Of a stretch of 64,000 nt of DNA, positions 4,859-62,353 are shown in pieces (positions within the stretch are counted from its first letter, which is position 1; the number at the start of each line of letters is the position of its first letter). The position numbers were made by a program, and so were the translations under genes. The notes under the pieces are model-generated. The model made no database searches, was not told the origin of the DNA, and saw only the letters and a program-made list of their open reading frames with translations. This DNA is from an uncultured Trueperaceae bacterium (GTDB lineage: Bacteria; Deinococcota; Deinococci; Deinococcales; Trueperaceae): contig CALCHY010000048.1 in the NCBI GenBank assembly GCA_937907415.1, forward strand, positions 1 to 64,000, read 5' to 3'.

Positions 4859-4864
4859 ATCATA
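4859..4864 (-). promoter_or_regulatory. Candidate -10 box for the pilin gene
   Basis: TATGAT on the minus strand about 80 bases before the pilin ATG, with no clear -35. The leader it would define contains a small hairpin (CCCGC, GATT, GCGGG) near 4799-4812. Confidence 0.4.
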
Positions 4865-4953
4865 CAACAAATAGTAAACTGAGAAAGCATTAGATTACGT
4901 TAACAACGGTCTGCGTGCCGCGAGGTGCCCAGCCGTCACATGCCAAGAAGAAA

Positions 4954-8953: not shown

Positions 8954-9580
8954 TTAGTTGGGCCGGACTTCGGGCCAGGGGGTTTCGGTGCCGTCGATGA
9001 AGACGGCGGGCACACCGCGCACGCCGGTGGTCTTGAAGGCGGTGTTGGCGCGTTCTTGCGCGGCGCCGGCGTCGATGCACGTTTGGAGGGCGACCTCGTC
9101 GGCGTGCTGAGCGCCGAGCGCGCGAGCGTGCTGGGTCCAGTGGTTGGTGTCGCCGCCGGGGGTCTTGAGGTCGGGGAGGATCCGTAGGGCGGCTTGGGGG
9201 CCGGCCAGCTCGGCGACGCAGTTGTAGGCGGCGCCTTTGATGGTGCTCTTCTCGTTGAGGAAGGCGGCGGCGGTGACGTTGAGTTGCGCTTGTCCTGCCT
9301 TGGCTTGCTCGAGGATGGTGGCGTAGGCGTCGCCGCTGAGGAACTGGTTGCAGTAGGGGCACTCGAAGTCGACCACGATGTCGTAGCGGGGGCCGCTACT
9401 GCCGAGCGTGGGTTGCTGCTGGAGCAACACGAGCTCGGGGGCTACTGCTTGGGCCTGGGTGTCGGCTCCGGTCTGCGTGATGGCGTAAGCGATCACGCCG
9501 GCGAGTAGGACGGCGAGGAAGGCGATCAGTTGGGCTGTGCGGGGGCGGCGGGAGCGGGGAGCAGGGTCGGTTCTCGTCAT
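8954..9580 (-). CDS. Membrane-anchored DsbA-like thiol oxidoreductase
   Basis: 208 residues: one N-terminal membrane anchor (about 18-36, LIAFLAVLLAGVIAYAIT), then a DsbA-type thioredoxin fold with active site CPYC (DFECPYCNQF) and the cis-Pro loop GVPAVFIDG near the C-terminus. Between them lies the helical insertion with two more cysteines (YNCVAEL, LQTCIDAG). Family knowledge places it outside the inner membrane as a disulfide oxidase or isomerase. It is the first gene of the pilM-N-O-Q operon, and several pilus proteins here are cysteine-bearing (pilins, the two giant minor pilins), so a role in their oxidative folding is a reasonable inference. Confidence 0.88.
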   Translation of the reverse strand: MTRTDPAPRSRRPRTAQLIAFLAVLLAGVIAYAITQTGADTQAQAVAPELVLLQQQPTLGSSGPRYDIVVDFECPYCNQFLSGDAYATILEQAKAGQAQLNVTAAAFLNEKSTIKGAAYNCVAELAGPQAALRILPDLKTPGGDTNHWTQHARALGAQHADEVALQTCIDAGAAQERANTAFKTTGVRGVPAVFIDGTETPWPEVRPN

Positions 9581-16005: not shown

Positions 16006-19000
16006 CTACTGGAAGGCGCAGCGGACTGTTTGCCACCCCTCGAGCGTCACGTTGGAGGCCATGACGCTGCATTGTGGTGCGGGGGTTGGGTCTTGTTCGC
16101 TCCAGGCGACGGCGATGTCGGCCCAGGCGCTGCACCCGCCGGAGCCCACATTGCTTCTTCCCGCGTAATGCCAGCGGCCGTCGCCAGGAGTCTGAACTGA
16201 CAGCGGGCCGGTGTTGTAGGAGCACCACATTCCTGACCACGTGAACTCGTAAGTGATCGTGCGGATCTCTTGGGCTCTCAGGGAAGCGGTCTGCGCGTAG
16301 TCGCTCTCTCCGGTGGCGTTCGCGGCGGCGACTCGGTACTGGTAGTAGAGCGAGCTGACTAGGTTGGTGTGCGTGAAGCTGCGGTTGCCGCCCTCGTACA
16401 CCGAACGCCAGGCGCCCCAGGTGCCGTCGTCATCGCTAGTGCGGACTTGCAGCTTGTAGCTGGTTATGGAGGCATGGCCGTCGGCGCTGGGGGCGTTCCA
16501 CTCGACCGTGAGTGTGTGGTCGCCGCTGCGAGCGAGGGCGGGTGAGCGGGGCACGGTGGGCGGTTCGGCGGCGGTCACGACCACGCTCGGGGTGCTGGTG
16601 GCGCCGACGACGGCGGCTTGGTTGATGGCGGCTACGCGGTACTGGTAGGCGACACCGACGCTTAAGCCGCGGTCGTCGTGACTTAGTACGCCGGGGCCGG
16701 TGCTGGCGATTAGCGTCTGCCACTCGCCGTTGCCGACGCGGCGCTCGAGGCGGTACCCCTGCACGTCGTTGGGGTCGGCGTCCGGGGGCGCAGCCCAGCT
16801 GATGTGAAGGCGCGCGGTGCCGGCGTGCGTGACGTGGGGTTGCGTGGGCGCGCCGAGGGCGGGGTGCGCCTCGTAGGTGTTGCTGGGGCCACTGGCGCTG
16901 CTGTCACCAGCTGCGTTGGTGACTATGACGCGGTAGCGGTAAGAGCGCCCGGGTTGTGCCTCCTGGTCGACGTACTGCGTCTCGTGCCCCGCGAGGGTGG
17001 CGTGCTTGCTCCAGACGCTGTTGAGCTCGCGTTCGAGGGTGTAGGCGGTGATGGGTGTGCCGCCGTCGTTGGGAGCGAGCCAGGTGATGAGGGGGTGCGT
17101 GAAGCTGCCGGGGGCGGTGGCCACGAGGGGCGCGTCGGGCTGCCCGGGTATGCGGATCAGGAGTTGGGGTGGGGTGGCGGGCGTGTAGGGGCTGATGTGG
17201 TTCGCGCCCAGGGTCGTGACGGCCGCTACGCGGTAGGAGTGCTCTGCCCCGAGTTGCGCGTCGGGGTCCGTGAAGCTGGTGGTGGGGTTCTGGTGATCGT
17301 GGATGGTGGCCCACTCGTGATCGTTGGTCTTGCGTTGGATGCGGTACCCGATGACTTGCGCGCCGCCTGCGTCGTTGGGGGCGCCCCACGCGAGCTGGAA
17401 GGCGCCTTCTGTTGTGTCGGGGGTGGCTGTTAGGGCGTTGGGGGCGGCGCTGCGCGCGAGCGCTACGACGTCGTCGCTGGCGGGGCTGGGTTCGCTGGTG
17501 GCGTCGGCGGTCTTGGCGCGCACTCGGTAGGCGTAGGTGACGCCGGCGGTTATGCGCGTGTCGGCGTAGGTTTGGATGGCTGCGGCTTGGGCGGGGATGG
17601 TGGTGAGCGTGGTGAAGAGTGAGCCGTGTTCGGCGCGCTCGAGGAGGTAGGCGGTCACGCTGGGGGTGCTGCTGGCGTCCCACTCGAGGCTGATGCTGAG
17701 GTGTTCGCGGCCGGTGAGGCGGGGCGCGTTGGGGGCGGTGAGGGCTGCGGATGCGGCGATCAGGGTCTCTTCGCTTGTTGGGCTGTCGTGCTGTTGGTTG
17801 CGGGCGGTGACGCGGTAGGCGTACGTGCCGCCGGGCTGGACGGTTGTGTCGGTGAAGGTGGTGTTGTCGTGGTCTTGCGTGAGTACCACCCAGGTTCCGT
17901 GGTCGGCTTGGCGGCGTTCGAGGCGGTAGGTGAGGCTGGTGGCGCCGCCGGCGCTCGCGGGGGCGTCCCAGGCGATGGTGAGGCTGTCTTGGTTGCGGTA
18001 CCGCAGCTTGGGGGCGCCGGGTTGGCTGGGGGCAGTGAGGGAGGTCACGAGCTCCATGGGGGGCGTGTACGCTCCGGTGCCGGAGGCGTTTACGGCGGCG
18101 ATGCGGTAGGCGTAGTGCCGGCCGGGTTCGAGTCCCTGGTCGAGGAACGTTTCACTTTCTAGTGCGCTCAGGTGCCGCCAGGAGCCGCCTTCTTCGCGGC
18201 GCTCTAGGCGGTAGTTGGTGATGGGCGCGCCGCTGACTGGTGGGTTCCAGGCGAGGAGAGCCTCGGTGTCGCTGCGGGGCGCGGCGCTGAGGTCGCGTGG
18301 ACTGCTGGGCGTGTTGCGGGTGGTGACGCTTAGGCGCCGGGACGGTTGACTGTCGCCGTGCTGGTTGGCGGCCACGAGGTAGACGCTGTAGTTGGCGTCT
18401 GCCTGCAGGCCGGTGATGGTGAGGCTGGTGGCGTCACTGGGGCCGGTGGTGGTCGTCCAGGTGCCCCCGTCGCGGGTGTGGTGCGCGCGGTAGCTGGTGG
18501 CGCCGGGGGCGGGTTGCCACGTGAGGGTGATGGCGGCGTGGCCGTTGAGGGAGTGCCCGTCGGCGCGCTCGAGTTCGGGGGGTGCTGGCGGGCCTTGGGG
18601 GGTGCCGATGGGGAGCGTTAGGGGTGTGCTGCGGCCGGCGCTGTTGATGGCGGTGACGCGGTGGTGGTAGGGGCGGCCGTTCTCTAGGTTGGTGAGGCGC
18701 GCGTGCGGTTGGGTGGGCTCGTACGGGAGCGTCTGCCATACAGTGCCGTTGCTGCTTTGTTCGAGGCGGTAGGCCGTGATGGGGTTGCCGTTGTTGGGTG
18801 GGGCGTCCCACGCGAGCTCGAGGGCTTCGTGGAGTGGGGTGATGCGGCCGTTGGTGGGGGTTCCGGGCGGTCCGGCGGGGGTGTGGGGGCCGCCGGTGTG
18901 TTCGTAGCGGGGTTCGCCGTAGGGATTTAGGGCGGTGAGGCGCAGGAAGTACGGTTGGCCGTTGGTGAGGTTGTCGAGGTGGTAGGTGGGGCTGGTGGTT

Positions 19001-20577
19001 TGTCCGGCTTGCTGCCAGTCGCGGGCGTCGTGACTGTGGTGGATCTGGTAGGTGAGGTCTTCTTCGGGGGCGTCCCAGGCGAGGGTGAGGCTCTGGTCGC
19101 CGATCGTGACGCGCAGGTTGTCGAGGTTCTCGTGCTGACCGGGTCCGAGGTTGCCGGGGGTGAGTTGGTGCGTGGCGGTGGGTGTTCCGGGCGTGTTGGC
19201 GGGCCAGGTGATGAGGTCGGCGCCGATGATGGCGGCGTGGTGTTCTTGACCGGCTCGGATGAGGTCGGCGCGGGTGATGGTGGTGCTGCCGCCGGTCGTT
19301 TCGTTGGTGATGAGGCGGATCTCGAGTGGTTGGGTGGTGTTGTTGGTGAAGCGGACGAGTTTTGCGTCTTGCGTGATGGCGAGGCCTTCGCTGGCGCTGA
19401 GGCTGTAGTGGGTGATGCGGGCGGGTGCGCCGTCGGGGTGAGTGAGGAGGCGCGGGGTGCGGCCGGCTCCCCACACGAAGAGGCGGCCGGCTTGGTCTAG
19501 GGCGGCGCCGCGGTCACCGCCGGCGTTGACGCTGACTATGGGTAAGTCGGTTTCCAACTGGATGGTGTCTGCGGAGCAGACGCTGCCGCAGGAGCGCCCT
19601 AGTTGTTGGCTGTGGTTGGCGCCCCACGACCAGGCGCGTCCGCGGCTGTCGAGCGCGATGACGTGGTTGTCGCCGGAAGCGACGGTGATCAGGGCGGGTC
19701 TGGCGCCGTCAACGATGGGCATGTCGAGGCGCGTTATGTCCTGCAAGCTTTCGCTCATGCTCATGCTGGTGGGCCGAAGTGGCCCGCGTGTGTTGTTCCC
19801 CCAACCGTACAGGTCGCCATGCTGGGTGAGCGCGAGCGCGTACCGGTCGCCGCTGGTGATGCTAGTAATGCCCGCGAGCTCGTTGAGGAGGCTGGGGGTG
19901 GCGCTTTGGTCTAGTGGCCACTCCCACACGCGGCCGGTGGCGTCGAGGAGGACCCCGAGTTCGGCGCGGGTGCCGCTGGTGCTGCCGCGAGCGGCGAGTT
20001 GCGCTGGTGGGGCGTTGAGCTCCGGGAACGGTATGGGGATGTGGCTGGTGTCGGCGAGTTCGCGTCGGTAGACGCCGTCTTGGTAGATGCCGAGGGTGAT
20101 GGGGTCGGCGCCGGGCGCTTGGTGTATGAGCGCGTCGCGCCATTCGCCTTGGAGCGTGAGGGCTTCGAGGTTCACGTTGCTGGTGAGGTGCCGGAGTGGC
20201 TCGCCGGTGTGCGGGTTCATGCGGACGGCGGACCATTGGTTGGTGCCGACGAGGTCGGCGTGGATGCTGCCTAGCGCGGCGAGGCTTAGGTCCAGGCGGT
20301 ACTCGAGGCCGTTGAGTCGGTGGTTGGTGACGTTGAGGTCGGCGAGTTGCTCGAGCTCGACGGCTTGCGCGCCGAGGGCTTGTTGCACGAGGGCCTTGCC
20401 GTGTTCGATGGCGGCGTCGGTGGTGGCGCGCTCGAGGGCTCGGTTGCTGATCTCGCTGGTGTTGCGGGTGCTGCGGGTTTGCGTGGCGAGGATGGCGAGG
20501 GCGGTGAGGCCGAGGAGGCTGGCGAAGACGAGCGCGTAGACGATGGCACTGCCGCGCGTGCGGGGGTGTGCTCTCAC
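16006..20577 (-). CDS. PilX-like giant minor pilin with RCC1-like propeller and ten FN3 domains
   Basis: 1523 residues. The N-terminus RGSAIVYALVFASLLGLTAL resembles PilX-type pilus-assembly proteins (short basic leader, one long hydrophobic helix) but lacks the +5 Glu. Residues about 205-460 hold six RCC1-like repeats (GDRYALALTQHGDLYGWGNN, GDNHVIALDSRGRAWSWG), which fold as a beta-propeller in the family. Residues about 470-1430 contain ten fibronectin type III domains (each with LxW...AP and YRV/YRYRVAA signatures). The last 85 residues form a four-cysteine domain (SGMWCSY, GGCSAW, PQCSV, RCAF) shared with the giant PilV-like protein upstream. The GTG start overlaps the previous stop by four bases (GTGA), so it is translationally coupled as the last gene of the operon. 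A surface adhesin assembled at the pilus tip is the likely role; PilY1-like function is my inference. Confidence 0.85.
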   Translation of the reverse strand: MRAHPRTRGSAIVYALVFASLLGLTALAILATQTRSTRNTSEISNRALERATTDAAIEHGKALVQQALGAQAVELEQLADLNVTNHRLNGLEYRLDLSLAALGSIHADLVGTNQWSAVRMNPHTGEPLRHLTSNVNLEALTLQGEWRDALIHQAPGADPITLGIYQDGVYRRELADTSHIPIPFPELNAPPAQLAARGSTSGTRAELGVLLDATGRVWEWPLDQSATPSLLNELAGITSITSGDRYALALTQHGDLYGWGNNTRGPLRPTSMSMSESLQDITRLDMPIVDGARPALITVASGDNHVIALDSRGRAWSWGANHSQQLGRSCGSVCSADTIQLETDLPIVSVNAGGDRGAALDQAGRLFVWGAGRTPRLLTHPDGAPARITHYSLSASEGLAITQDAKLVRFTNNTTQPLEIRLITNETTGGSTTITRADLIRAGQEHHAAIIGADLITWPANTPGTPTATHQLTPGNLGPGQHENLDNLRVTIGDQSLTLAWDAPEEDLTYQIHHSHDARDWQQAGQTTSPTYHLDNLTNGQPYFLRLTALNPYGEPRYEHTGGPHTPAGPPGTPTNGRITPLHEALELAWDAPPNNGNPITAYRLEQSSNGTVWQTLPYEPTQPHARLTNLENGRPYHHRVTAINSAGRSTPLTLPIGTPQGPPAPPELERADGHSLNGHAAITLTWQPAPGATSYRAHHTRDGGTWTTTTGPSDATSLTITGLQADANYSVYLVAANQHGDSQPSRRLSVTTRNTPSSPRDLSAAPRSDTEALLAWNPPVSGAPITNYRLERREEGGSWRHLSALESETFLDQGLEPGRHYAYRIAAVNASGTGAYTPPMELVTSLTAPSQPGAPKLRYRNQDSLTIAWDAPASAGGATSLTYRLERRQADHGTWVVLTQDHDNTTFTDTTVQPGGTYAYRVTARNQQHDSPTSEETLIAASAALTAPNAPRLTGREHLSISLEWDASSTPSVTAYLLERAEHGSLFTTLTTIPAQAAAIQTYADTRITAGVTYAYRVRAKTADATSEPSPASDDVVALARSAAPNALTATPDTTEGAFQLAWGAPNDAGGAQVIGYRIQRKTNDHEWATIHDHQNPTTSFTDPDAQLGAEHSYRVAAVTTLGANHISPYTPATPPQLLIRIPGQPDAPLVATAPGSFTHPLITWLAPNDGGTPITAYTLERELNSVWSKHATLAGHETQYVDQEAQPGRSYRYRVIVTNAAGDSSASGPSNTYEAHPALGAPTQPHVTHAGTARLHISWAAPPDADPNDVQGYRLERRVGNGEWQTLIASTGPGVLSHDDRGLSVGVAYQYRVAAINQAAVVGATSTPSVVVTAAEPPTVPRSPALARSGDHTLTVEWNAPSADGHASITSYKLQVRTSDDDGTWGAWRSVYEGGNRSFTHTNLVSSLYYQYRVAAANATGESDYAQTASLRAQEIRTITYEFTWSGMWCSYNTGPLSVQTPGDGRWHYAGRSNVGSGGCSAWADIAVAWSEQDPTPAPQCSVMASNVTLEGWQTVRCAFQ

Positions 20578-21077
20578 GGGTCCCTGAACCTCACTGCTGT
20601 CTCGTGGCGTCGCTCGCGCTCGCCGTGCTGGAGTGAGATGGTGATGGTGGTTAGGTCGCCTTGGACGGTTGCTTCGATGCTCTTGGTGTTGAGCGCGAGT
20701 GGCGTGATGGTGGTGCGGTGCGCGCGGTAGAGGGTTCCGTCCTCGAGGTAGTAGGTGATGGCTGTGCGGGGCCTGGGGGTGGGTTCGAGGTGGATGGTGA
20801 GGCTGCCGGGGCGGTCGGGGTCGGTGTGTAGGGTGGTGGTTTCGGCTTCGGGGTCAATGACGCTGCCTTGGCGGCTGGCTGCGCGTAGGTCGTCTTTGAT
20901 GATGTTGAGGGCGGTGCGGGCATCGTGAGTGAGGCTGCGTTCGGCCTGCGCGCCACTGGCGGTGCGGGTGGCGGTGTCAGTGACGACGAGCCCGCCGAGC
21001 ACGAGGCCAGCGAGGATGGCGGCGCTGATGAGCACCTCGTTTAGGCTGACGCCTTGTGTTCTGGCTGGGCTCCGCAC
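20574..21077 (-). CDS. PilW/GspJ-like minor pilin
   Basis: 167 residues from a GTG at 21077 with AGGAGA six bases upstream. Type III prepilin site: TQG followed by VSLNEVLISAAILAGLVLGG, with Glu at +5. The body is a pilin-like alpha/beta fold: helix ARTALNIIKDDLRAAS, then strands SLTIHLEP, TAITYYLEDGTLYRAHR and TITISLQHG, the usual GspJ/PilW pattern. Minor pilins of this group prime pilus assembly and sit at the tip. It lies between the two small membrane proteins and the PilX-like giant protein. A TAAACT box at 21171-21176 could give an internal promoter. Confidence 0.82.
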   Translation of the reverse strand: MRSPARTQGVSLNEVLISAAILAGLVLGGLVVTDTATRTASGAQAERSLTHDARTALNIIKDDLRAASRQGSVIDPEAETTTLHTDPDRPGSLTIHLEPTPRPRTAITYYLEDGTLYRAHRTTITPLALNTKSIEATVQGDLTTITISLQHGERERRHETAVRFRDP

Positions 21078-21173
21078 TAGGTCTCCTCTTCCCTCTTATG
21101 TGGGAGGGAACCGTGCGCGCCGTCCTGGAGGTCGCCCAGTCGGTCCTGGCGCGCACAGTCTACGATTCTCAGT

Positions 21174-21695
21174 TTACTGTGTTTCGGCTGTCTCAGAGGC
21201 CTCAAGGCGGTTCTGCGGAGATGTATTCAGCGGGCGATTCGAGTCTTCCGGATATGGGACTGGCGCTAGTGCCATATGGGCGTATCGGTTAGAGGCGAGT
21301 TCAAGGATGCGGGGGACGATGGCGCCGCGCCAACTGCCTTCAACTCGGATGGCGTAGTAGCCTGCCTGCTCGTTGCAGGTTGGCACCCAATCGTTACGCA
21401 GTGGGTCGAAGTGAGCGAAGAGGATTTCGGCGCGCAGCTCGTACGCGGTTCTCCCCTGCTTGATGGTGTCCACCCAGGTGGTCGGGCAGGCCATGGGCGC
21501 TTCGGAATGGAGCTCGAGTTCCTGCAGGCGCTGGTCGATGGCTGCTAGGTGCTCGTGCATCATTTCGCCGACCACGTAATGGTGTTGGGTGTCGAGGCTA
21601 CCTGGTGGGAGCAGGAAGAGTGTCAGGGCTGCGGTAATGAACATGACGGTGACCGCGGCGATGGCTAGCGTCCGGGGGCGCTGGGTGAAGCTCAT
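21174..21695 (-). CDS. Small membrane-anchored pilus-operon protein
   Basis: 173 residues: one N-terminal membrane helix (about 10-30, LAIAAVTVMFITAALTLFLL) and an exported domain with two cysteines (MACPTTW, PTCNEQAGYYAIRVEGSW). No Gly-Phe prepilin site or +5 Glu. It looks like a paralog of the preceding gene: both have the cysteine pair, the YYxI-E-W-type strand (YYAIRVEGSW and YYLLEITSGW) and a C-terminus of VPY then RLEA. It overlaps that gene by four bases. It may be a non-canonical minor pilin or a chaperone-like partner of the giant tip proteins. Function unknown. Confidence 0.75.
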   Translation of the reverse strand: MSFTQRPRTLAIAAVTVMFITAALTLFLLPPGSLDTQHHYVVGEMMHEHLAAIDQRLQELELHSEAPMACPTTWVDTIKQGRTAYELRAEILFAHFDPLRNDWVPTCNEQAGYYAIRVEGSWRGAIVPRILELASNRYAHMALAPVPYPEDSNRPLNTSPQNRLEASETAETQ

Positions 21696-22201
21696 TGGTG
21701 CGCCTCAAGTCTTGATCCGGCTGCGACTGTGTAGGGGACCGGTTCGTTCCGCAGGTAGGGGAGCATGAGGAGTTCGGGGTTCTCGCGTGCCTTGAGCATG
21801 TCCTGCACCATTAGGACGCGTACCGCTTGGGGGTTTGTGTCCCATCCGGATGTGATCTCTAGAAGGTAGTAAGGGGTGTCGTCACAGGTCGGTTCTGGTT
21901 GTGCCATGCCGGGTTGGGGCGCTTGCGTTCGCGTGATGGTGGCGGCGAGGGTGTAGGTGGCGTGGCGTCCGTCGTGTATGCGTTGGGTGATGGCTGGACA
22001 GGGCAGGGTTGGGGTGGCGCCGGTTGCGTCCTGGAAGGAGAGTTCGACCATCGCTGCCGACCAGTGGTTGATGAGGCTGGATGCTTCAGTCATGCGGCGG
22101 TATGCGCGGAGGCTGGTGGTGTAGTGGGTCATTAGCGCGGCCGTCGCGAGAAGGGCGAGTACGGTGATGATGCGCGGGAGGAATCGAGTGTAGTTGGTCA
22201 T
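21692..22201 (-). CDS. Small membrane-anchored pilus-operon protein, paralog
   Basis: 169 residues with one N-terminal membrane helix (ITVLALLATAALMTHYTTSL) and an exported domain with two cysteines (LPCPAIT, PTCDDTPYYLLEITSGW). Preceded by AAGGA; it starts 28 bases after the giant protein's stop codon and overlaps the next gene by four bases. Similar architecture to that gene. The helix followed by a long amphipathic segment (SSLINHWSAAMVEL) is pilin-like, but the PilD cleavage motif is absent, so it may stay in the inner membrane. Confidence 0.75.
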   Translation of the reverse strand: MTNYTRFLPRIITVLALLATAALMTHYTTSLRAYRRMTEASSLINHWSAAMVELSFQDATGATPTLPCPAITQRIHDGRHATYTLAATITRTQAPQPGMAQPEPTCDDTPYYLLEITSGWDTNPQAVRVLMVQDMLKARENPELLMLPYLRNEPVPYTVAAGSRLEAHQ

Positions 22202-22229
22202 GGAGCGTGTCCTTGGGGGGTTGTTGGGC

Positions 22230-31200: not shown

Positions 31201-34200
31201 TCGCCCGCGGTGATGCGGCTCTGGCTCGCCTGTAGGCTCGCGGTCGGTAGGGCCGTTTGCTTGATGGTGACGGTGGCCGTGACGGCCTTCCCGGCGGCGT
31301 TGGTGGCGGCGAGCGTGAAGGTGCGCTCGGTGGTTACGCGCCTTGTGGTGGCGCCTTCTGCGCGCGGGCTCACTTCGGCGCCCTCGAGCGTGACTTTGCT
31401 GGCATGCCGGGTGCCCCAGCGGAGGGTCACGTCGGCTTCGCCGTGCACGAGGAGTTGGTCGGCGGTGAAGCCTGTGATGATGGGCGCCTCGTGAACGCGG
31501 ATTGGGTTGGGGAGCCGCCGCTCGGCGAGCACCCGGCCGGCCTGGTCGGTGATGCGCAGGACGTACTGCGTGCTGCTCGTCGGGCTGAGCGTGATGGCTT
31601 CCGCGTCGTGCTCGAGCTGGTCGCCGGTGGGGTGGAGCGTGAGGGTGTGCTGCGCCTCGTTGAAGCCGGTGAGGCTCCAGGTGAGGGTGACGTCCTCGCC
31701 GCTGGTGACGTTCTCCTTGTCGGCGGTGAAGGCGTCGATGTGGACGCCTTGCACCTTGACGGTGGCGGCTTGGGCGGTTATGCAGTCGCCGGTGGCGGCT
31801 TCGAGACGGTAAGTAGTGGTCGTGTCGGGGCGGAAGGTGCGACTGCCTTGGGCGGGGACGTGGACGCCGTTGAGGGTGACGCTTTCGGCCGTGCCGGCGT
31901 CCCACGCGAGGGTGATGGTTTCGCCTCGCGGAATGCTGGTCTTGTCGGCGGTGAGGCTGAGGGTCGGCTGGGGGGTGACGCGCGCGAGGAGCGTTTCGGT
32001 GTTGCCCTTGTTGCCGAGGGCGTCAATGGGCGTAAGGGTGAACTGGCGGGCTGTGGTGATGGTCTGGTTGAGGCTGCCGGCGGCGGGGCGCTGCTGGCCG
32101 TCGATGAGGACGTGTGTGGCGTTGCCGCTCTCCCAGGTGAGCGTGACGTTGCCCGGCTGGCACTGTTGGGCTGGGGTGACGGTGGCTCGCGTGAGGGCGG
32201 GTTTGCCGTCAATGGCGAGGGTTAGGCGTTCGCTGCGGCTGAGGAGCCGGTTGTTGGTGTCGCGCAGCTCGAGCCAGTAGGAGGTCGGGTCCGTGGCGGT
32301 GACTTGCTGCTCGGTGAGGGTGGTTACGTCCGCACCGAGGGGCTCAAGGGTGAGGGTGTGCTTGTCAGGGTCGAGTTCGCTGGTGGCGCTCCAGGCGAGG
32401 GTGCTGCTGCCGCCGGCGGGGATGGTGGCCGGGGTGGCGGTCAGGCTTTCGATCTGGAGTTCTTCGACTTCTACCGTGACCAGGTGCGTGGTGCGGCAAT
32501 CGCTGGCGCCGTTGGGCGTGTTGGTCTCGAGGCGGTAGACGGTCGTCTGGGTGGGGGTCACGACGAGCGTGCCGGTGAGGGGCACGGGCTGCCCGTCGAG
32601 GGTGGCGGCGTGCGCGCCGGTGACCACCCATTGGAGGGTGACGTTTTCGCCGCGGAGGATCTGTTCTTGGTCGGCGGTGAAGGTGATGGTGCGCTCGGGT
32701 GCGATGAGGGGCGCGGCGGTCTGCTGCGTTTCCCACCCGAGGGCGTTACTGGCTTTGAGGGTGAAGGTGGTGCCGGTGACTTGGCGGGTGCCGTTGGCGG
32801 GCACCGTCTGGCCGTCTAGCGTGGCGCTGGTGGCGTTGCGTGTGGCCCAAGTGAGGGTGAGGGCCTGGGTGGGGGTGCAGATGTAGGCGGGGTCGACGCG
32901 GAGCGCGTCGATGATCGGCTCGCTCGCGACCGTGAGGGTGGTTGGGTTGCTGGTGGCCAGCACCGTTTCGGGGCTGGCGCGGAGGCGCACGCTGACGCGG
33001 TACGCGGTGGTTTCGCTGGGGGCCACGACTTGGGTGCCGCCGGCGACCTCGAGACCGAGCGGCTCGAGGATGGTCTGGTGCAGGTCGGGGTGGTACCCGT
33101 CGAGTTCCCAGGTGAGGGTGCTGCTGGCGCCGGCGTTGATGGCGTTCGGGCTGGCTTGCAGGTCGTTAGCAGTGACTGGCTGCGGGGTGATGGTGAGTTC
33201 GCGGGTGCTGGTGATGCACCCGTCGGCGCGCGCCTCTAGGGTGAAGGTTTGGGCGCTCGTGGGGGTGATGGTGAGGCTGCCGGCGGGCTCGACGCGCCTA
33301 CCGTTGAGGAGGACCTCATCGGCATGCTGGGCGCTCCAGGTGATCTTGGCTTCGCCGCCCAGGGGAACGCTGGTTCGGTCAGCTTCCAGGCTGGTTGTGG
33401 GGGCGGGGCGGGTCGTGACCGCCTGGTAGGCGTAGGTGCTGGCGCCGAGGCTGTTGCGAACCTCGAGCTCGAACGCCTCAGTGGCGCTGATGGTGCGGGT
33501 GGTGGTGCCGCCGCCGGGGGTGCTTAGGGCTTCGCCGTTGAGGAAGGCGGCCGCGGCGCCGGTGGCTGTCCACGCGAGCGTGACGGTGCCCGCTTGGCAC
33601 ACCTGCTGCGGGGTGGCGGTGAAGAGCGTGACGACGGGCGGGTCGAGCACGAGGGCGTTGACGCTGCTCTGGTGCAGGAGTTGCCCGACGGCGCCACGCA
33701 GGGTGAGTCGGTAACTGGTGTCTACCTGGGGGCGCACCGCGAGCTGCGTGAGGCTGGTGACGTCAGCGCTGTGGTTCTCGCCGCCGCTGGGGATGGTGTC
33801 GAGCGTGAGGGTGTGGATGCCGGGCGTGAACGGCCCGTCGAGCTCCCAGGGGAGCGTGAGGGTGTCGCCGCGCGTGACCTCGGCGGTGGTGGTGAGGCCG
33901 AAGCGCTTGATGCTGACTGGGTCGACTTGGACGCTGACTTCAGCGGGGGTGATGCAGGTGAACGCGCTGCCGGCGGCGTTGTCCGTGGCGGCGATGAGTT
34001 GGTAGGTGGTGGCTTCGCGGGGCGTGAGGGTGCGGCTGCCTTGGGCTGGCACGCTCTCGCCATCGAGAGTCACGCGGTCGGCATCCACCGCGTCCCAAGT
34101 GAGGGTGATGGTGTCGCCTTCGGGGATGCGCGCCTTGTCGATCACGAAGGTCACGACCGGCTGCGGCGCCTGGTGCACGGTCACTTGGGCGGTATCGGGG

Positions 34201-37133
34201 TACGCGAGGCGGTTCTCGGCACGAAGCGTGAACGTGCGGGTGCCGTCGATCTCGAAGCTGGTGCCGAAGGGATTGTTGGCGGGCACATCGACGTTATCTA
34301 GCAGGACGCGCGTAGCGTGGGCGGTGCCCCAGGTGAGGTTGGTGCTGCCGACACCGCAGATGCCGATGGGGTCGGCTTGGAAGCTCGTGACGGTGGGCGC
34401 TTCGTCAACCACTACGGTCACGGTGTCGCTGGTGGCGAGCTCGCGTTTGGGTTCGGCGCGTTCGGTGATGGTGAGGGTGTAGCGCTCGCGGGGCGGGAGG
34501 GGTGTTACGGCTTGGCTGGTGAGGCTGGTGACGTCGAGGCCGAGGGGGTGGAGTTCGACGTGGTGCAGGGTCGGGTCGAGGTGGGCGACGTTCCAGCGCA
34601 GGGTGGTGCTTTGGCCGCGGGTGATGTCGCTGTGGTCGGCCGTGAAACTGGTGACGTTGACTTCGTGGACTTCGATGGTGCGTTCGATGCGGATGGGGGC
34701 GCAGTCGGGTCCGTTGGTGAGTTCGAGGACGTAGGTGGTGGTCGTGAGGGGGTTGATGGGCAGTGTGCCGGCGGGGTCAACGACCTGTCCGTCGAGCGTG
34801 ACGCTGGCGGCGTGTTGCGTGTCCCAACGCAGCGTGGTGGTCTGGCCGGCGGTGATGGCGTCGTGGTCGGCCGTCATGGCGCCGGCGGGGATCTCGTAGT
34901 AGGTGACGGGGACGGGGCTTGAGGTGATGGCGTACCCGAGGCGGTTTTGGGCTTCGAGCACGAGGGCGGGCGTGGCCGATGTGATGTTGACTTGGGCGGT
35001 GCCGGCCGCGGCCGGCGCTAGGGCCTGTCCGTTGATCAGGACGCTGCTGGCGTGGCGGGTCTCCCAGCTGATGGTGACGGGCGTGGGCCCGCACACGAAC
35101 AGCGGCTCGACGGCGAAGGCGTCGATGACGGGCTTCTCGACGACCGTGAGGGTACTGGGGTTGCTTCGGGTGAGTTCGCGGTCGTTGCTGGCGTAATCGG
35201 GTGCGGCTGGGGTGAGGGCGTGGCCGCTGATGCGGTCGTAGGCGACGACCGTGTAGGCGAACTGCCCGGCTTCGGTGGTGGTGATGGTGAGGCTGGTGTC
35301 GCTGCCGACGTCGATGCTGCCGGGTTCGACTACGAAACGGTGCAGGTTGGGGTCGAAGGCGTCGTTGAGTTCCCACGTGAGTACGGCTTCTTCGCCGCTG
35401 GTGACTTCGGCGGGAGCGATGGTCACGCTAGTGATGTCGAGGGGCTGGACGGCGATGGTGATCTGGCGCTCGACGCTCTCGCAGCCTTCGTTGCTGGCGG
35501 TGAGCGTGTAGGTGGTGGTGTTGAGTGGGGCGACGGTCCAGGTGCCGGTAGCGTCTACGACCTGGTTGTTGATGGTGACGGTTTGGGCGTGGGTGACTTC
35601 CCAGCTGAGGGTGAGGGTGTCGCCTTGCGTGATGTTGGTCTTGTCGCTGGTGAAGGTCGGGTTGGGGCTGGGGATGTGCGTGATGGTGATGTGGTCGCTT
35701 TCGACCTGGTGCCCGGCTTCGTTCTCGGCGATGAGGTAGACGGCTTGCGTGGCGCCTATGGGGAGGATGTGGTTGGTGGCGCCTGTGACGTCGACGCCCA
35801 TGGGCATGAGCGTGAGCTTGCTGGCGTTCACGGCGCTCCAGGTGACGTTGATGGGTTGGGCGCCGCACACCTTGGCGGGGCTGGCGTCGAAAGCGTCTAT
35901 GCGGGCGGGCGGGACCGTCTCAACGGTGGCCGTTCGGGTGGCGAGCACGCTACCGGCCCTATCAGTGACCGTGAGGGTGTAGGTGGTGGGCCCGGAGACC
36001 GTTACGGGCTGGTAGGTGGTCGTGGTGACGTCGCGGCTGGTGCTGTCGCGGCTGTTGGTGATGGTGGCGGTGTGGTGTGCGGGGCTGAGGGCGTGGTTGT
36101 AAGTCCAGCCAAGGGTGACGCTCTCCCCTTCCGTAACGGTGTCACGGTCGGACTTGAAGTCGAGGATCTCGAGCGGCTCGACAGTGAGCGGCGCGTCGAT
36201 GACTTGGGTGATCTCGCAGGCGCCGTTGACGAGTCGGAGGGTGGCGAGCGCGCCGTTCACTGGTTGGATGCTGCGGGTGCCGCTGGCGACGACTGGTTCG
36301 TCGTCGAGGAAGACGGCTTGCGCGTCAGTGGTGCTCCACGAGAGGGTGCTGGGGACGCCTTCTAGGGTGGGGTTGGGGTTGTACGCGAAGGCGTTGAGGA
36401 GCGGCACGGCGTCGACGATGGCGGTGCGTTCTTCCTTGACCGTGATGCCGGCGATGTTGGTGGCTGTGAGAGTGAAGGTGGTGGTTTCATTGATGTCCAG
36501 CGCGCGCGTGCCGGTGAAGTCGACCTCGAACGGTTCGGCGTCACCGATCTGCAGGGTGATGGTGGCGGCGCCGTAGATGGCCCAATCGAGTTGCACGCGG
36601 CCGGGCAGTTCGGCGGCGCACATGCCGATGGTCTGGCTGGTGGGGTCGTTTTCGTCAGCGTCGCTGATGATGAAGTGGTCGAAGACGGGGTGCGCTTCGT
36701 AGGTGGGGTCGCTGCTGGTGAGGGTGCTGAGGTGGACGTTCTCCCCGCCCTCCCAAGCGACCGTCACATCAACCTGGAACAGGTCGGTGCCGCTGCAGTC
36801 AGCGACTTCGCTGTACTGGCCGGTGTGCAGGTTGAGGACCAGGGGGGTGAGCTTGAGGATCGTGTGGTACTCGGTGCCGCTGTCGCCTTCCTCGGTGCCG
36901 GTGGTGGTGCCGGGGCAAGTCAGGGCTTCGGGGTCGTCGCGGAGGACGGCGACCGTCTCTTCGATGATGCGCTCGGCGATCTGGGTGGCTTCTATGGTGC
37001 GTTGGTTGTGGAGGTTCCCGCGGATGGTCTGGGTGACGATCATGGTGATGCCGAGCACCGCCATGGCGATGACGAGGGTGGCCACCGCGACCTCTACGAG
37101 GGTGAAGCCTTGCTTACCGAGTCTGGTTCTCAT
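22230..37133 (-). CDS. Giant PilV-like tip adhesin: prepilin, 47 Ig-like, 7 FN3, discoidin, Cys-rich end
   Basis: 4967 residues in one uninterrupted 14.9-kb frame. Residues 1-50 are a classic prepilin N-terminus (KQG, then FTLVEVAVATLVIAMAVLGI, Glu at +5) as in PilV/GspI. About 50-160 is a pilin-like domain with a cysteine pair. About 160-4040 is a stalk of sixteen A, sixteen B and fifteen C modules in A-B-C order, about 82 residues each, with Ig-like features (A: CG then TLTW...NAS..LNG; B: G.TATLTW then DGQ, then TTTYTL; C: LTW then DP.LH.L.L.P). About 4040-4480 has four FN3 domains; a discoidin (F5/8C) domain at about 4475-4630 is nested in a fifth; two more FN3 domains follow. The last 80 residues are the four-cysteine domain shared with the PilX-like protein. 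GGAGG precedes the ATG. Likely a pilus-tip adhesin reaching far from the cell. Confidence 0.9.
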   Translation of the reverse strand: MRTRLGKQGFTLVEVAVATLVIAMAVLGITMIVTQTIRGNLHNQRTIEATQIAERIIEETVAVLRDDPEALTCPGTTTGTEEGDSGTEYHTILKLTPLVLNLHTGQYSEVADCSGTDLFQVDVTVAWEGGENVHLSTLTSSDPTYEAHPVFDHFIISDADENDPTSQTIGMCAAELPGRVQLDWAIYGAATITLQIGDAEPFEVDFTGTRALDINETTTFTLTATNIAGITVKEERTAIVDAVPLLNAFAYNPNPTLEGVPSTLSWSTTDAQAVFLDDEPVVASGTRSIQPVNGALATLRLVNGACEITQVIDAPLTVEPLEILDFKSDRDTVTEGESVTLGWTYNHALSPAHHTATITNSRDSTSRDVTTTTYQPVTVSGPTTYTLTVTDRAGSVLATRTATVETVPPARIDAFDASPAKVCGAQPINVTWSAVNASKLTLMPMGVDVTGATNHILPIGATQAVYLIAENEAGHQVESDHITITHIPSPNPTFTSDKTNITQGDTLTLSWEVTHAQTVTINNQVVDATGTWTVAPLNTTTYTLTASNEGCESVERQITIAVQPLDITSVTIAPAEVTSGEEAVLTWELNDAFDPNLHRFVVEPGSIDVGSDTSLTITTTEAGQFAYTVVAYDRISGHALTPAAPDYASNDRELTRSNPSTLTVVEKPVIDAFAVEPLFVCGPTPVTISWETRHASSVLINGQALAPAAAGTAQVNITSATPALVLEAQNRLGYAITSSPVPVTYYEIPAGAMTADHDAITAGQTTTLRWDTQHAASVTLDGQVVDPAGTLPINPLTTTTYVLELTNGPDCAPIRIERTIEVHEVNVTSFTADHSDITRGQSTTLRWNVAHLDPTLHHVELHPLGLDVTSLTSQAVTPLPPRERYTLTITERAEPKRELATSDTVTVVVDEAPTVTSFQADPIGICGVGSTNLTWGTAHATRVLLDNVDVPANNPFGTSFEIDGTRTFTLRAENRLAYPDTAQVTVHQAPQPVVTFVIDKARIPEGDTITLTWDAVDADRVTLDGESVPAQGSRTLTPREATTYQLIAATDNAAGSAFTCITPAEVSVQVDPVSIKRFGLTTTAEVTRGDTLTLPWELDGPFTPGIHTLTLDTIPSGGENHSADVTSLTQLAVRPQVDTSYRLTLRGAVGQLLHQSSVNALVLDPPVVTLFTATPQQVCQAGTVTLAWTATGAAAAFLNGEALSTPGGGTTTRTISATEAFELEVRNSLGASTYAYQAVTTRPAPTTSLEADRTSVPLGGEAKITWSAQHADEVLLNGRRVEPAGSLTITPTSAQTFTLEARADGCITSTRELTITPQPVTANDLQASPNAINAGASSTLTWELDGYHPDLHQTILEPLGLEVAGGTQVVAPSETTAYRVSVRLRASPETVLATSNPTTLTVASEPIIDALRVDPAYICTPTQALTLTWATRNATSATLDGQTVPANGTRQVTGTTFTLKASNALGWETQQTAAPLIAPERTITFTADQEQILRGENVTLQWVVTGAHAATLDGQPVPLTGTLVVTPTQTTVYRLETNTPNGASDCRTTHLVTVEVEELQIESLTATPATIPAGGSSTLAWSATSELDPDKHTLTLEPLGADVTTLTEQQVTATDPTSYWLELRDTNNRLLSRSERLTLAIDGKPALTRATVTPAQQCQPGNVTLTWESGNATHVLIDGQQRPAAGSLNQTITTARQFTLTPIDALGNKGNTETLLARVTPQPTLSLTADKTSIPRGETITLAWDAGTAESVTLNGVHVPAQGSRTFRPDTTTTYRLEAATGDCITAQAATVKVQGVHIDAFTADKENVTSGEDVTLTWSLTGFNEAQHTLTLHPTGDQLEHDAEAITLSPTSSTQYVLRITDQAGRVLAERRLPNPIRVHEAPIITGFTADQLLVHGEADVTLRWGTRHASKVTLEGAEVSPRAEGATTRRVTTERTFTLAATNAAGKAVTATVTIKQTALPTASLQASQSRITAGDQATLTWVASGQQVLLNGASVPATGSMTVAPTRTTTYYTLEARDQAGQKATSTVTITVDPVRVESLTADPTRIQEGDEVTLTWQTTNTFDPELHTLTLQPDSQDVTGRTSIVLEANETTTYQLVLTDKSGRELHRTQPGPLVTLEGAGAIASLTATAPTCAANETSVAWVTRGASSVRLNGQTLDANLTRRGAQALTPAPTQVTLEALNATGNIIDTREITLATPSAPTVAQFRANRSAALAGQTATIEWNVTGAHRVTIDGVEVPAQGEATLAVHETTTYTLHAISADGCAVTERLTIEARHVSVEDLQADKATIRPGESVTLTWTYPVAPAAEHQVILEGHGPLTRNGNTYPISQAVNPTATTTYAVAILDPHGRVLARSNTLTIAVQHQPEIVTFDATPIGVCGAGDVLLTWTTRNASKTFLEHSGAQHDVTTAYGTTAVRANPGDELTLTAWTNYGDDTRTITIGGGQRPSISFNVTPAHRTAGQEATITWDVHGVTSVKLNGQRVNASGTLTDASHQTVAYKLEVEADGCDPIVLERVIHTASVHAYALTADRTRITDGDTTTLRWSLSDNLDPNTHKLVLDPTDQDVTNLRALDVTPGQTTTYSLRVTDKAGATLGASPNVTITVEGYPVITSFDATPMQVCGVQDATFTWTTLNASRVLLNGADVSPVGSGSTTRRITQSGEYVLEAINPLGVRVTSEPLVIQQANQPTITFTADKTTIVDGEPVELTWEAKDATSVTLDGQSAATAGKLTVYPRQTTTYALAANNPTAGIPCETTATVNVTVQPVGIQSFTVTPKDVTVGHDYQLAWGLNSRFDQQLHIVQVDGGSDLGTATSLTRAADESRTHTLTLKRRHDNSVIATKTSGVTVHAAPTIDTLSLAPAAICEGGQSTLEWVTRHANTVTLNGQTVAASGTRTLTPGASANYELIATNPAGTSVQRQATLTVNPRPVITFTTTKATMTAGDTATLTWSIQNATSARINGQNVPLTGSMEVDPLETTTYTLSVDQALCGTTSRQVTVNVNDVSIQMLWFDPSAITVGDPTTAYWDLSPTYSPTLHRLELTETHPENRILADTLTGDRFTFTPDPSDLGTGSMAYDLTVYDLAGRTLDRYNADFGIYAEPRIHDLTATPAAICAAPDQTHADVTLHWTWSGNISRSFLNGEERPYGMIWYSPVTHPVSETTTFVLEGRNFPAYWGDSSRGITTAEITVPFTQVIDPTFSASKARITAGDTVTLTWNAIGATTVGLDGQAVSASGSLQVRPTSTTTYTLTAQTGDCAPITKTITITVDPVSVDTFSADKTNVTSGDPVQLTWSLTRYSTSLHKLVLQPLGTTVTGTNTTVHPTVTTNYRLRIDDNHGRALAQGPQLTVTANAAPAIESFTVQPQLVCGPKDVTLTWSTINATALRLNGQALTPISNGSTTRRVTGNTTFTLAALNAAGGSVTEAHTVTYVAPLEASLTSNKSRMVRGDTATLTWSVSGAKNITLDGQTVNATGTRQVTPTQTTTYTVVATSEHCGTITRTVTVEVDPVTITDFRLDDSTQFDEHGSISRDAPDFHWQTTNLNPSLHALELTAPTGVVTDLPGAGTWSDTSGRTFTYVLTIYDLARNIVDRTEIETFVQPLITGTWPATNVCLPAPLEVAWTVHDAQKYTVHQNGQLVANVDRSPNVITELVRRTVNLADDQPVTLTYTATNPLGSTAAQSVTIQGAYPPELTLTSTPAVAGAPVTVTWSIANAPAATTIRLDGQSVPATGSTTYTIGKTTRAHTLTIEGDPCGAYEKTLPVTPALPTIPTFNTNTTTVTVGDTAQFTWSTNAHYDPTHHRLELAAPGQDQPGISDVAYDLGTATSHARTITKAAAHDYRLTIYSRHTGEQLAASAVRRVTGVHPPRIDSFTATPQQVCSTNPTSTLAWAAANATSRTLTGAGSVAATGSRTINLTGAASYTLTAGNAAGTTVTRTVNVAYITAPEITSFTTQGPSANNNYVTAGKTYTLSWSMSDPNAVPILDGVPLAAGTTSATRAAPNSPDPITHTLELELGPCATEPVSLIAHPAIAPSAIPAPVATITAEQEVTLTWNAPASSGNAPITSYGVYRLTNGTNPATVYLTNVNSYVDEGVLPGNTYKYFVWAGNAANLWGPYSPYSNEVTVIGAPGIPGTPTITNASDRSLTIAWAPPTFDGGALITSYRVERQASSDGSAWDAWSTAQSGNNGTTFTDTGLTAGTYYRYRVAATNQAGASPSSSPSVSARALTTPSAPNTPSITPSGDKQLTVTWNTPANDGYSSITGYRLYRTTTSDGLPPVTTTIEINGSPSGPQEYVDSNLLTGAKVTYRVAAMNTIGEGALSAESSQESVLTVPGVPESIIATVFGESGLQIVWQAPVITAVAPLDSYQLQRQTSSNGTSWNSWETIVPDTGNIARTIFDEGLTAGTYYRYRVAGLNQAGVGEYSPPSDETMAINGPEGVTNLRAHVHSDVTHRITWDNPSDDPTAPIDNLHIHFQSLPNLARNATISGSSSTPERVNDGHASIHSSSGIYASFGSGTGTNSGAENSYIQIDLGTSQEIAAVVAYFYGSDTRHYWYKVKVSEDGNNWTYLAGNANTTGWAQSPDSREVTTGDYLPTIAEAPSETITARYVRLYANGSTANSGNHILELEVLGAGTWYSTRNLGGHLGTEDATVELPAAHAGDYIRYRTQVRNSAGWVNSEPTNVNRAATNPGTPVAPVVSLDSDRRLRINLTAPTSGYDIITGYNIQYRTGINDKNWGAWTTLNANTGNHNTSYTHGGLTAGTYYQYRVAAINAAGTGPISATSSALRAATVPSTPSAPRAAATGDRIINVTWSAPSNGYSPITGYTVQRSTNGGAWVQIGTPSTASIIDTGVAAGSTYQYRVLARNALGPGGVSAASTSIRPYYYRNVEYRHRWSGFWCTYTLENRPVVYGNNVWHQEYFTSGGGCAMTATTGTRWNAQLANPTPECTVLNSNQSGAWALGWCRWW

Positions 37134-58745: not shown

Positions 58746-58755
58746 CTGGATTCCT

Positions 58756-62346: not shown

Positions 62347-62353
62347 AGTCCTG

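What the first reader, a model, noticed from the sequence alone, without database searches (positions are those of the whole stretch)
16006..37133. Operon of giant minor pilins: a candidate new pilus-tip adhesin system
Seen: five overlapping or closely spaced minus-strand genes, the first a 4967-residue PilV-like protein with a perfect prepilin N-terminus and the last a 1523-residue PilX-like protein, with two paired membrane proteins and a PilW-like pilin between. Known: canonical pilus tips are made of PilV/W/X minor pilins plus a separate PilY1. Inferred: here the adhesin parts (Ig stalk, FN3, discoidin, RCC1-like propeller) are fused directly onto minor pilins, replacing PilY1. I know of no described tip complex with this build.
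Basis: partly seen in the sequence, partly recalled or inferred. Interest (0 to 1): 0.93.

Follow-up and report, generated by a model that had tools for sequence, protein, structure and literature searches.

The report
Giant tip pilins on a plasmid
A plasmid-like piece of bacterial DNA carries the genes for a surface hair (type IV pilus) in which two of the small proteins expected at its tip have become giants, one of nearly 5,000 amino acids with a chain of about 48 beads, probably a tether for catching other cells or surfaces.

Summary
Five minus-strand genes (16006-37133) encode a 4967-aa protein with a canonical prepilin N-terminus, two small membrane proteins, a PilW/GspJ-like pilin and a 1523-aa protein with a GspK-like head. 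Modest-confidence models give pilin-like heads on both giants, Ig domains on the first and an RCC1 propeller on the second. The window also carries pilus machinery and plasmid genes, and shares backbone genes with Deinococcota plasmids; six of those have T4P loci with enlarged prepilins (549-1501 aa), so the window is the extreme of a pattern I found no report of. New: the stalk is 16 Cys-marked three-Ig units, each conserved by position (16 of 16) in a relative 47% identical, while the regions beyond both stalks vary; the giants share a four-Cys C-terminal cap. Adhesive modules fused to pilins are known (modular pilins, ComZ, R64/TP114 PilV), so 'no described build' is too strong, and 'replacing PilY1' cannot be shown. 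Best reading: a plasmid-borne T4P whose tip complex carries giant tethers, most likely for catching recipient or other cells. New variant of a known kind.

The parts
22230..37133 (-). Giant I: 4967-aa modular minor pilin (PilV/GspI-like head)
   Evidence: ORF; TIGR02523 E=2.9e-6 below cut-off; AF2 of residues 1-339
36699..37133 (-). Giant I pilin head, residues 1-145 (GFTLVE, helix, four long strands at 75-140)
   Evidence: sequence; AF2 model, mean pLDDT 72, under 50 for residues 1-41; the five models range from 72 to 40
24954..36686 (-). Giant I stalk, about residues 150-4060: 16 units of ~247 aa, three Ig-like domains each (the last unit may have two)
   Evidence: unit-by-unit comparison with P0049; motif spacing; Ig fold of the first part
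23256..23642 (-). F5/8-type-C (discoidin) domain, residues 4498-4626, set among FN3 domains
   Evidence: Pfam PF00754 E=1.9e-10, PF22633 E=5.4e-10
22233..22508 (-). C-terminal four-Cys cap of giant I
   Evidence: 15 invariant columns in 4 sequences, 4 of them Cys
21692..22201 (-). 169-aa single-span membrane protein; no prepilin motif; possibly a degenerate pilin
21174..21695 (-). 173-aa single-span membrane protein, possible distant relative of the 169-aa one
   Evidence: BLASTP E=0.006 for this one pair
20574..21077 (-). J subunit: 167-aa PilW/GspJ-like minor pilin (QG|VSLNE)
   Evidence: TIGR01711 E=0.0025, below cut-off
16006..20577 (-). Giant K: 1523-aa GspK/PilX-like modular minor pilin (no Glu5)
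20182..20577 (-). Giant K pilin head, residues 1-132
   Evidence: AF2: helix 8-69, strands 82-132, pLDDT under 50 for most of residues 1-39
19165..20001 (-). RCC1-like beta-propeller, residues 193-471
16285..19125 (-). FN3 stalk of giant K, residues 485-1431
   Evidence: Pfam fn3, 10 stretches in the protein; collinear in 5 homologues
16009..16284 (-). C-terminal four-Cys cap of giant K, kept in P0009 and absent from P0008, P0010, P0011, P0012
38439..39101 (-). PilP-like secreted protein upstream of the giants
   Evidence: TIGR03021 E=2.1e-4, below cut-off
37390..38430 (-). PIN/TRAM-type membrane protein between the PilP-like gene and giant I; link to the pilus unknown
4994..6688 (-). PilQ-type secretin
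   Evidence: PF00263 E=5.9e-36, above cut-off; TIGR02515 E=2.8e-39, below cut-off
6698..7300 (-). PilO/GspM-like
   Evidence: position; NF040576 E=0.0014, below cut-off
7297..7872 (-). PilN-like
   Evidence: position between PilM and PilO, one N-terminal span; no NCBIfam match
7874..8935 (-). PilM
   Evidence: TIGR01175 E=2.6e-17, below cut-off
8954..9580 (-). DsbA-like thiol oxidoreductase beside PilM
   Evidence: PF13462 E=1.2e-7
4189..4890 (-). Candidate major pilin (QG|FTLIE)
   Evidence: PF07963 E=3.3e-7
60838..62628 (-). PilB extension ATPase (5' end probably over-called)
   Evidence: MshEN and T2SSE, E=3.6e-128
62398..63603 (+). PilC platform protein
   Evidence: PF00482 E=7.2e-50
54683..55474 (-). 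ParB partition protein
57753..58799 (-). RepB-type primase
   Evidence: PF16793 E=5.5e-11

Best explanation
The locus encodes the tip complex of a plasmid-borne type IV pilus. Giant I (4967 aa), the small J-type pilin (167 aa) and giant K (1523 aa) would form the GspI-J-K-like trimer that primes and caps the pilus (inferred by homology; K lacks Glu5, as the capping subunit does). Their pilin heads pack into the fibre; their C-terminal parts hang outside. Giant I carries a fixed stalk of 16 x 3 Ig domains (about 48, roughly 170-190 nm if straight, at 3.5-4 nm per domain recalled from titin-like Ig chains), then FN3 domains with a discoidin domain and a four-Cys cap. Giant K carries an RCC1 propeller, an FN3 stalk and the same kind of cap. 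Shown: operon layout, prepilin motif, domain architecture, fixed unit number, variable ends, shared cap, pilus machinery and plasmid genes in the same window. Inferred: tip location, adhesion, and that retraction pulls the bound target in. Most likely use (about 45%): holding other cells, above all recipients for the plasmid, as PilV adhesins do on IncI plasmids; otherwise holding surfaces or prey.
For: Prepilin N-termini and pilin-like heads. Gly-1 and Glu5 in 4 of 4 giant-I N-termini (window, P0049, P0057, P0061); Gly-1 with Tyr at +5 in 6 of 6 giant-K sequences, and the review PMC10191384 (passages) says the tip complex is capped by a subunit lacking Glu5. Pilus machinery in the same window. 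Adhesion-type modules. 16 of 16 stalk units match by position, no indel of 8 aa or more before residue 4207. Variable ends: indels of 8 aa or more only at 4207-4382 in giant I, and a breakpoint at residue 1431 in giant K. Plasmid: RepB primase and ParB; AddA/AddB/RNR/SSB-like genes shared with pOCEPR01 and SSB-like/SLOG/252-aa/ParB genes shared with pDEIPR02. Six Deinococcota plasmids with T4P loci and enlarged prepilins; pOCEPR01 is typed conjugative. TP114 PilV precedent (PMC9045228, passages).
Against: No relaxase or mating-pair T4SS gene in the 35 window proteins scanned with Pfam, though 100 kb or more of the contig is unseen. Of the six Deinococcota plasmids only 1 is typed conjugative; 4 of 6 are typed MPF_T, which PilB-like ATPases might trigger (my caution). 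No shufflon recombinase or silent C-terminal cassettes seen. No PilT or prepilin peptidase among the scanned window proteins. The family matches of all three minor pilins are below cut-off. The giant-I model rests on 3 sequences, its five models range from pLDDT 72 to 40, and no pilin is among the 50 rows shown by Foldseek or VIA. No ligand is known for any domain.
Confidence: 0.6

Rival explanations
1. A DNA-uptake (competence-like) pilus: the giant tip proteins bind DNA, as proposed for Thermus ComZ, a large tip pilin of the same phylum as the related plasmids.
For: ComZ is a GspK-like pilin with a large inserted domain and a proposed tip DNA receptor (PMC6561018, passages); Deinococcota are often competent (recalled).
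Against: ComZ has a beta-solenoid inserted in the pilin sheet; here Ig, FN3, discoidin and RCC1 modules follow the head. A stalk of ~48 domains seems unnecessary for DNA capture, and a plasmid gains little from DNA uptake (reasoning, not tested).
Confidence: 0.15
2. A contact pilus for attachment to prey or surfaces (predation, biofilm, twitching), which happens to ride on a plasmid.
For: Tad/Kil tips of Myxococcus are modular minor-pilin trimers for prey contact (PMC12075869, passages); the Ig stalk resembles the Aureispira grappling-hook protein GhpA in fold search (9fls and 9flw).
Confidence: 0.3
3. The giants are secreted or surface adhesins that borrowed a prepilin-like signal and never enter a pilus; the pilus genes nearby are incidental.
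For: Similar Ig-repeat giants exist as ordinary exported proteins: P0050 (4311 aa) matches the stalk region (28% identity) and starts with what reads as a Sec-type signal, no prepilin motif. The same first-700-residue search gave four more distant hits, P0051-P0054, whose N-termini I did not read.
Against: Both giants have strands that look like a pilin sheet after the helix, flank a J-type minor pilin, giant K overlaps that gene by 4 nt, and enlarged prepilins recur in T4P loci of other plasmids.
Confidence: 0.1
4. Assembly or gene-calling artefact: the giant ORF is a chance or chimeric reading frame.
For: The repeats could mislead an assembler.
Against: 6 contigs per giant in the protein database; a collinear relative of 5406 aa with all 36 Cys of the window protein conserved.
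Confidence: 0.01

Closest known systems
Modular type IV pilins (Streptococcus sanguinis PilB/PilC; survey in PMC8179133)
   Same: Functional domain grafted onto the C-terminus of a pilin head; IPR003961 (FN3, recalled) among the 15 commonest grafts in that survey
   Different: The survey's most extreme multi-domain case has 860 residues and 12 repeat copies; here 4967 and 1523 aa, two giants in one operon, a stalk of about 48 Ig domains
PilV adhesins of conjugative plasmids R64/TP114 (thin pilus)
   Same: Plasmid-borne T4P; minor pilin with constant stem and variable C-terminal end; recipient choice (PMC9045228)
   Different: No shufflon or rci seen; PilM/N/O/P/Q-type machinery; far larger; transfer genes not seen in the window
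Thermus thermophilus ComZ
   Same: Large GspK-like tip pilin in Deinococcota (PMC6561018)
   Different: Single beta-solenoid inserted into the pilin sheet; DNA receptor; no stalk
T4P loci of Deinococcota plasmids (pMESIL02, pOCEPR01, pDEIPR02, pDrdI, D. gobiensis P2, pDEGR-2)
   Same: T4P machinery genes on plasmids (PilB or PilT, secretin and PilC in five of the six stretches read; in pDEGR-2 only PilC was recognised beside the pilins), with one to three enlarged prepilins
   Different: Enlarged prepilins of 549-1501 aa; where Pfam sees repeats they are weakly CarboxypepD_reg-like, not FN3; no detectable similarity to the giant-I head
PilY1 on the T4aP tip
   Same: Beta-propeller displayed by the minor-pilin complex
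   Different: PilY1 is a separate non-pilin protein; here an RCC1-type propeller is part of the K pilin
GhpA grappling hook of Aureispira
   Same: Giant bacterial protein with Ig-like chain domains
   Different: From recall, a type IX-secreted filament and not a pilin; similarity is at fold level only

Membership tests
Type IV pilin (class III prepilin) | Short leader ending in Gly, Glu at +5, then hydrophobic helix | tested here: met
   Giant I QG|FTLVE and J QG|VSLNE; giant K has Gly-1 but Tyr at +5, as expected only for the capping K subunit
Type IV pilin (class III prepilin) | Pilin fold: alpha-1 helix packed on an antiparallel beta-sheet | tested here: inconclusive
   Helix plus strands in both models, but low confidence in the helix and no pilin chain among the 50 rows shown by Foldseek or VIA, which were filled by Ig and RCC1 hits
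Type IV pilin (class III prepilin) | Processed by prepilin peptidase and polymerised | not testable with these tools
   needs protein work
[quoted passage not shown]
   FN3, F5/8C and RCC1 domains after the head; Ig fold. The survey used the N_methyl domain, which here scores below Pfam's cut-off
GspI-J-K / PilV-W-X tip complex | I, J and K type subunits encoded together, K without Glu5 | tested here: met
   Gene order and N-termini; I, J and K family matches are all below the curated cut-offs
GspI-J-K / PilV-W-X tip complex | Subunits bind each other at the pilus tip | not testable with these tools
   no complex prediction available
R64/TP114-type conjugative pilus PilV | Shufflon at the 3' end of the pilin gene (recombinase, silent C-terminal segments) | tested here: not met
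   No recombinase among the scanned window proteins, only two weak inverted repeats (72-73%) in 15500-24500, no silent cap cassettes; DNA outside the window not seen
R64/TP114-type conjugative pilus PilV | Constant stem, variable C-terminal end | tested here: met
   (between homologues, not within one strain)
R64/TP114-type conjugative pilus PilV | Relaxase and mating T4SS on the same replicon | tested here: inconclusive
   None in the 35 scanned window proteins; 64 of at least 166 kb seen
PilY1 | PilY1 beta-propeller domain (Pfam PilC) in a separate protein | tested here: not met
   No such match in 35 window proteins; the propeller in giant K is RCC1-type. The rest of the replicon and the host are unseen

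The most novel reading that the evidence does not exclude
A plasmid-borne pilus with a measured tether: a stalk of exactly 16 three-Ig units (about 0.2 micrometre), held constant by selection, hangs from the pilus tip and presents exchangeable ends (FN3/discoidin modules and the four-Cys cap), so that the plasmid reaches for, selects and reels in its next host cell from beyond the pilus end. Deinococcota plasmids have repeatedly loaded different tip subunits (I, J or K) with such arrays, making this a recurrent partner-catching device of the phylum's plasmids.
Probability: 0.3. Interest if true: 0.85.

Novelty: new variant of a known kind. Interest (0 to 1): 0.65.

Why it matters
It extends the modular-pilin idea from smaller grafts (the most extreme multi-domain case named in the 2021 survey has 860 residues) to a 4967-residue subunit with a stalk of constant unit number, and links it to plasmids. 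It raises questions that can be tested: how so long a chain passes a secretin on one of the first pilins, whether tether length is under selection, and whether Deinococcota plasmids choose recipients through pilus tips as IncI plasmids do. Culturable plasmid carriers with smaller versions exist (Allomeiothermus silvanus, Oceanithermus profundus, Deinococcus gobiensis and others).

Tried and rejected
Host identification failed: no genome is held for the window. The genome-contig scan with the giant-K alignment found no relative (two peptide patterns only). The scan with PilB gave 80 loci (the best 80 of 112), none whose title names a Deinococcota, but it rests on six exact 8-mers and is not a placement. 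A search of three of those genomes with the giant-K alignment gave FN3-region matches only, in 2 of 3. Viral-collection scans gave nothing useful (one 26% match to the RCC1 part). A phylum-wide search needed a genome handle that I could not get. Phage origin was considered and dropped: of 9 proteins scanned against PHROGs, hits were ParB-, primase-, SLOG- and DNA-binding-type.

Shufflon searched for and not found. Promoter scans upstream of giant I and downstream of giant K: 0 found; terminator scans: 1 site in each region, no more than in shuffles. PDB sequence search with the giant-I head and the J pilin found nothing meaningful. Pilins do not appear among the 50 Foldseek or VIA rows shown for either model; those lists are filled by Ig and RCC1 chains, so this says nothing either way. 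Plain autocorrelation of the stalk was weak; the unit structure rests on the Cys positions and on the comparison with P0049. The idea that the 169- and 173-aa proteins are degenerate pilins rests only on a shared Cys/Trp layout; BLASTP between the giant-I head and the 169-aa protein gives E=2.1. The cap and the giant-I head have no match in the plasmid collection. Giant K itself matches 25 plasmid records there only in part, none covering 80% of it. D. peraridilitoris matched the 1501-aa prepilin's repeats but showed no T4P locus nearby and was left out of the count of six; Deinococcus sp. KNUC1210 has the closest plasmid PilB but no prepilin match in its whole plasmid. A first region of pDrdI with a lone secretin is not its T4P locus. 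No PADLOC match for the 178-aa gene downstream.

Literature searches. Six phrases such as 'giant pilin' occur in no paper of the library. The plasmid names pMESIL02, pOCEPR01 and pDEIPR02 were searched: 2 papers, both for pMESIL02 (listing only, not read). I read passages of PMC8179133, PMC10191384, PMC6561018, PMC9045228 and PMC12075869, none in full.
Full report
WHAT IS THERE. The five minus-strand ORFs exist at the stated coordinates. The 4967-aa protein starts MRTRLGKQG|FTLVE, a canonical class III prepilin motif, and its residues 8-59 match the PilV model TIGR02523 at E=2.9e-6, below that model's own cut-off. The 167-aa protein (QG|VSLNE) weakly matches GspJ (E=0.0025), and the 1523-aa protein (RG|SAIVY, no Glu5) weakly matches GspK (E=0.056). 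Position +5 is Tyr in all 6 giant-K sequences aligned. A review seen in passages (PMC10191384) says that the tip complex is capped by a subunit lacking Glu5. I therefore call the three subunits giant I, J and giant K. The 169- and 173-aa proteins between them have a membrane helix but no prepilin motif in any of 5 sequences.

THE STALK IS A FIXED ARRAY. The search with the first 700 residues of giant I gave 7 hits: itself, one full-length relative, P0049 (5406 aa), and five more distant proteins, of which the one I read is Ig-repeat throughout. The search with giant K gave 42 hits: itself, five close relatives P0008-P0012 (47-66% identity), and 36 that match only in part. P0049 and P0012 list the same longest-contig length (104,322), so they probably lie on one contig (inference). 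Giant I and P0049 are 46.8% identical over 4880 aligned residues. Between the head and residue ~4060 the protein is 16 units of about 247 aa, marked by two Cys each (the eighth unit of the window protein has lost its pair). Where a conserved strand motif is found (42 hits, not every domain), its spacing of about 77, 88 and 80 residues indicates three Ig-like domains per unit; the last unit may have only two before the FN3 part. Each unit's best match in the relative is the unit with the same number, in 16 of 16 rows and 16 of 16 columns; same-number identity is 36-57%, while different units within the window protein average 31% and reach at most 39%. All 36 Cys of the window protein are conserved. 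No indel of 8 aa or more falls before residue 4207; all nine such indels, each extra sequence in P0049, lie at 4207-4382, in the FN3 region. So the number and order of stalk units have stayed fixed while the region beyond the stalk changed. The boundary of the eighth unit was taken from the global alignment, and the end of the sixteenth was set at 245 aa. Only two full-length sequences were available for this test.

VARIABLE ENDS AND A SHARED CAP. In giant K, residues 1-1430 are collinear in all 5 relatives, with one insertion of 8 aa in one of them. At residue 1431 there is a sharp break: P0009 keeps the window's ending, P0008, P0011 and P0012 carry other, FN3-like modules, and P0010 stops. 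The window's ending is a cap of about 85 aa that giant I, P0049 and P0009 also have: 15 invariant columns in 4 sequences, 4 of them Cys. It has no match in the plasmid collection, and no Pfam family has its best stretch there. This resembles the constant stem and variable end of R64/TP114 PilV (PMC9045228, passages), but no shufflon, recombinase or silent cassette was seen.

SURROUNDINGS. The same window encodes PilM, PilN/O-like proteins, a PilQ-type secretin, a pilin and a DsbA-like protein (4-9.6 kb), a weak PilP match two genes upstream of giant I (38439-39101), and PilB and PilC at the far end. It also has a RepB-type primase and ParB. tblastn of 35 window proteins (giant I by its first 339 residues) against the whole of pOCEPR01, pMESIL02 and pDEIPR02 and 35 kb of the KNUC1210 plasmid found backbone genes shared with pOCEPR01 of Oceanithermus profundus (AddA 34%, AddB 28%, RNR 46%, SSB-like 43%) and pDEIPR02 of Deinococcus proteolyticus (SSB-like 46%, SLOG 50%, a 252-aa protein 36%, ParB 28%), besides PilB, PilQ, PilC and pilin matches. 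The window is therefore most likely a plasmid of the Deinococcota kind; the host is not identified.

THE PATTERN IN NAMED PLASMIDS. T4P loci with enlarged prepilins occur on six Deinococcota plasmids: pMESIL02 (1501 and 510 aa), pOCEPR01 (751, 759 and 549 aa), pDEIPR02 (864 aa), pDrdI (816 aa), D. gobiensis P2 (682 aa) and pDEGR-2 (590 aa). Three were found through PilB or secretin similarity; three through similarity to the 1501-aa prepilin, so those three are a biased sample. Pfam N_methyl matches 8 of the 10 large proteins scanned at E<=0.01, 4 of them above the cut-off. The two without are the 864-aa protein, which has a readable motif (HG|YTLIE) and a sub-cut-off N_methyl match, and the 572-aa K-like protein of pDEIPR02. 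The 1501-aa protein has Ala, not Gly, before FTLIE. A seventh plasmid, of Deinococcus sp. KNUC1210, has the closest PilB but no prepilin match at all. Judged by their N-termini (my reading), different subunits are enlarged: I-like in pMESIL02, J-like in the Deinococcus plasmids. PLSDB types one of the six (pOCEPR01) as conjugative and four as MPF_T.

HOW IT LIKELY WORKS. Minor pilins of the HIJK kind form a tip-located complex from which assembly starts (PMC10191384). Giant I, J and giant K would thus leave the cell first, their C-terminal chains threading the secretin. Forty-eight Ig domains at 3.5-4 nm each (recalled) would span 170-190 nm. The discoidin domain, propeller and caps are the likely binding parts. 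Retraction would pull the target in. The use in mating is an inference from the plasmid setting and the IncI precedent; I give it about 45%. Surface or prey attachment and DNA uptake remain open.

WHAT IS KNOWN. Fusing adhesive domains to pilins is described: more than 1,200 modular pilins in 264 architectures, the most extreme multi-domain case an 860-residue protein with 12 repeat copies, with IPR003961 (FN3 by my recall) and PF13620 among the extra domains of the 15 commonest architectures (PMC8179133, passages). ComZ is a large tip pilin from Thermus (PMC6561018, passages), and Tad/Kil tips are modular trimers (PMC12075869, passages). Six phrases such as 'giant pilin' or 'giant prepilin' occur in no paper of the library. 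In the library searched I found no report of a pilin of this size, of a stalk with constant unit number, or of enlarged prepilins as a feature of Deinococcota plasmids (listings; most subscription papers and all bioRxiv preprints are not held). Verdict: new variant of a known kind.

Noticed in passing
10321-14610 (+): 1429-aa NACHT-type protein is Avs2-like, an anti-phage STAND sensor (PADLOC E=5.5e-225).
   Followed up: partly
47666-50911 (-): B12-dependent ribonucleotide reductase interrupted at about residues 387-550 by an intein-like insert (Pfam Intein_splicing just under cut-off) that pOCEPR01's enzyme lacks.
   Followed up: partly
41896-47261 (-): AddA/AddB-like helicase-nuclease pair shared with pOCEPR01.
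   Followed up: partly
39102-39764, 39817-40518, 56723-57391 (-): Three similar-looking lipoproteins (220, 233, 222 aa), two upstream of the giant operon and one near the RepB gene; function unknown; similarity judged by eye.
   Followed up: no
60838-62628 (-) and 62398-63603 (+): PilB and PilC ORFs overlap head to head by 231 nt as listed; PilB's start is probably over-called.
   Followed up: no
51688-52674 and 53376-53867 (-): SLOG/DUF4326 protein with weak ShosA match and an Mrr-like nuclease domain protein.
   Followed up: no
L006:26685-31190 and L005:24732-26987: The large prepilins of pMESIL02 and pOCEPR01 also end in short aromatic/Cys-rich tails, recalling the window's cap; judged by eye, not aligned.
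   Followed up: no
8954-9580 (-); L006:12221-12787: A DsbA/thioredoxin-like gene sits beside pilus genes both here and on pMESIL02 (25% identity over 79 aa, E=0.001); giant I is Cys-rich.
   Followed up: partly
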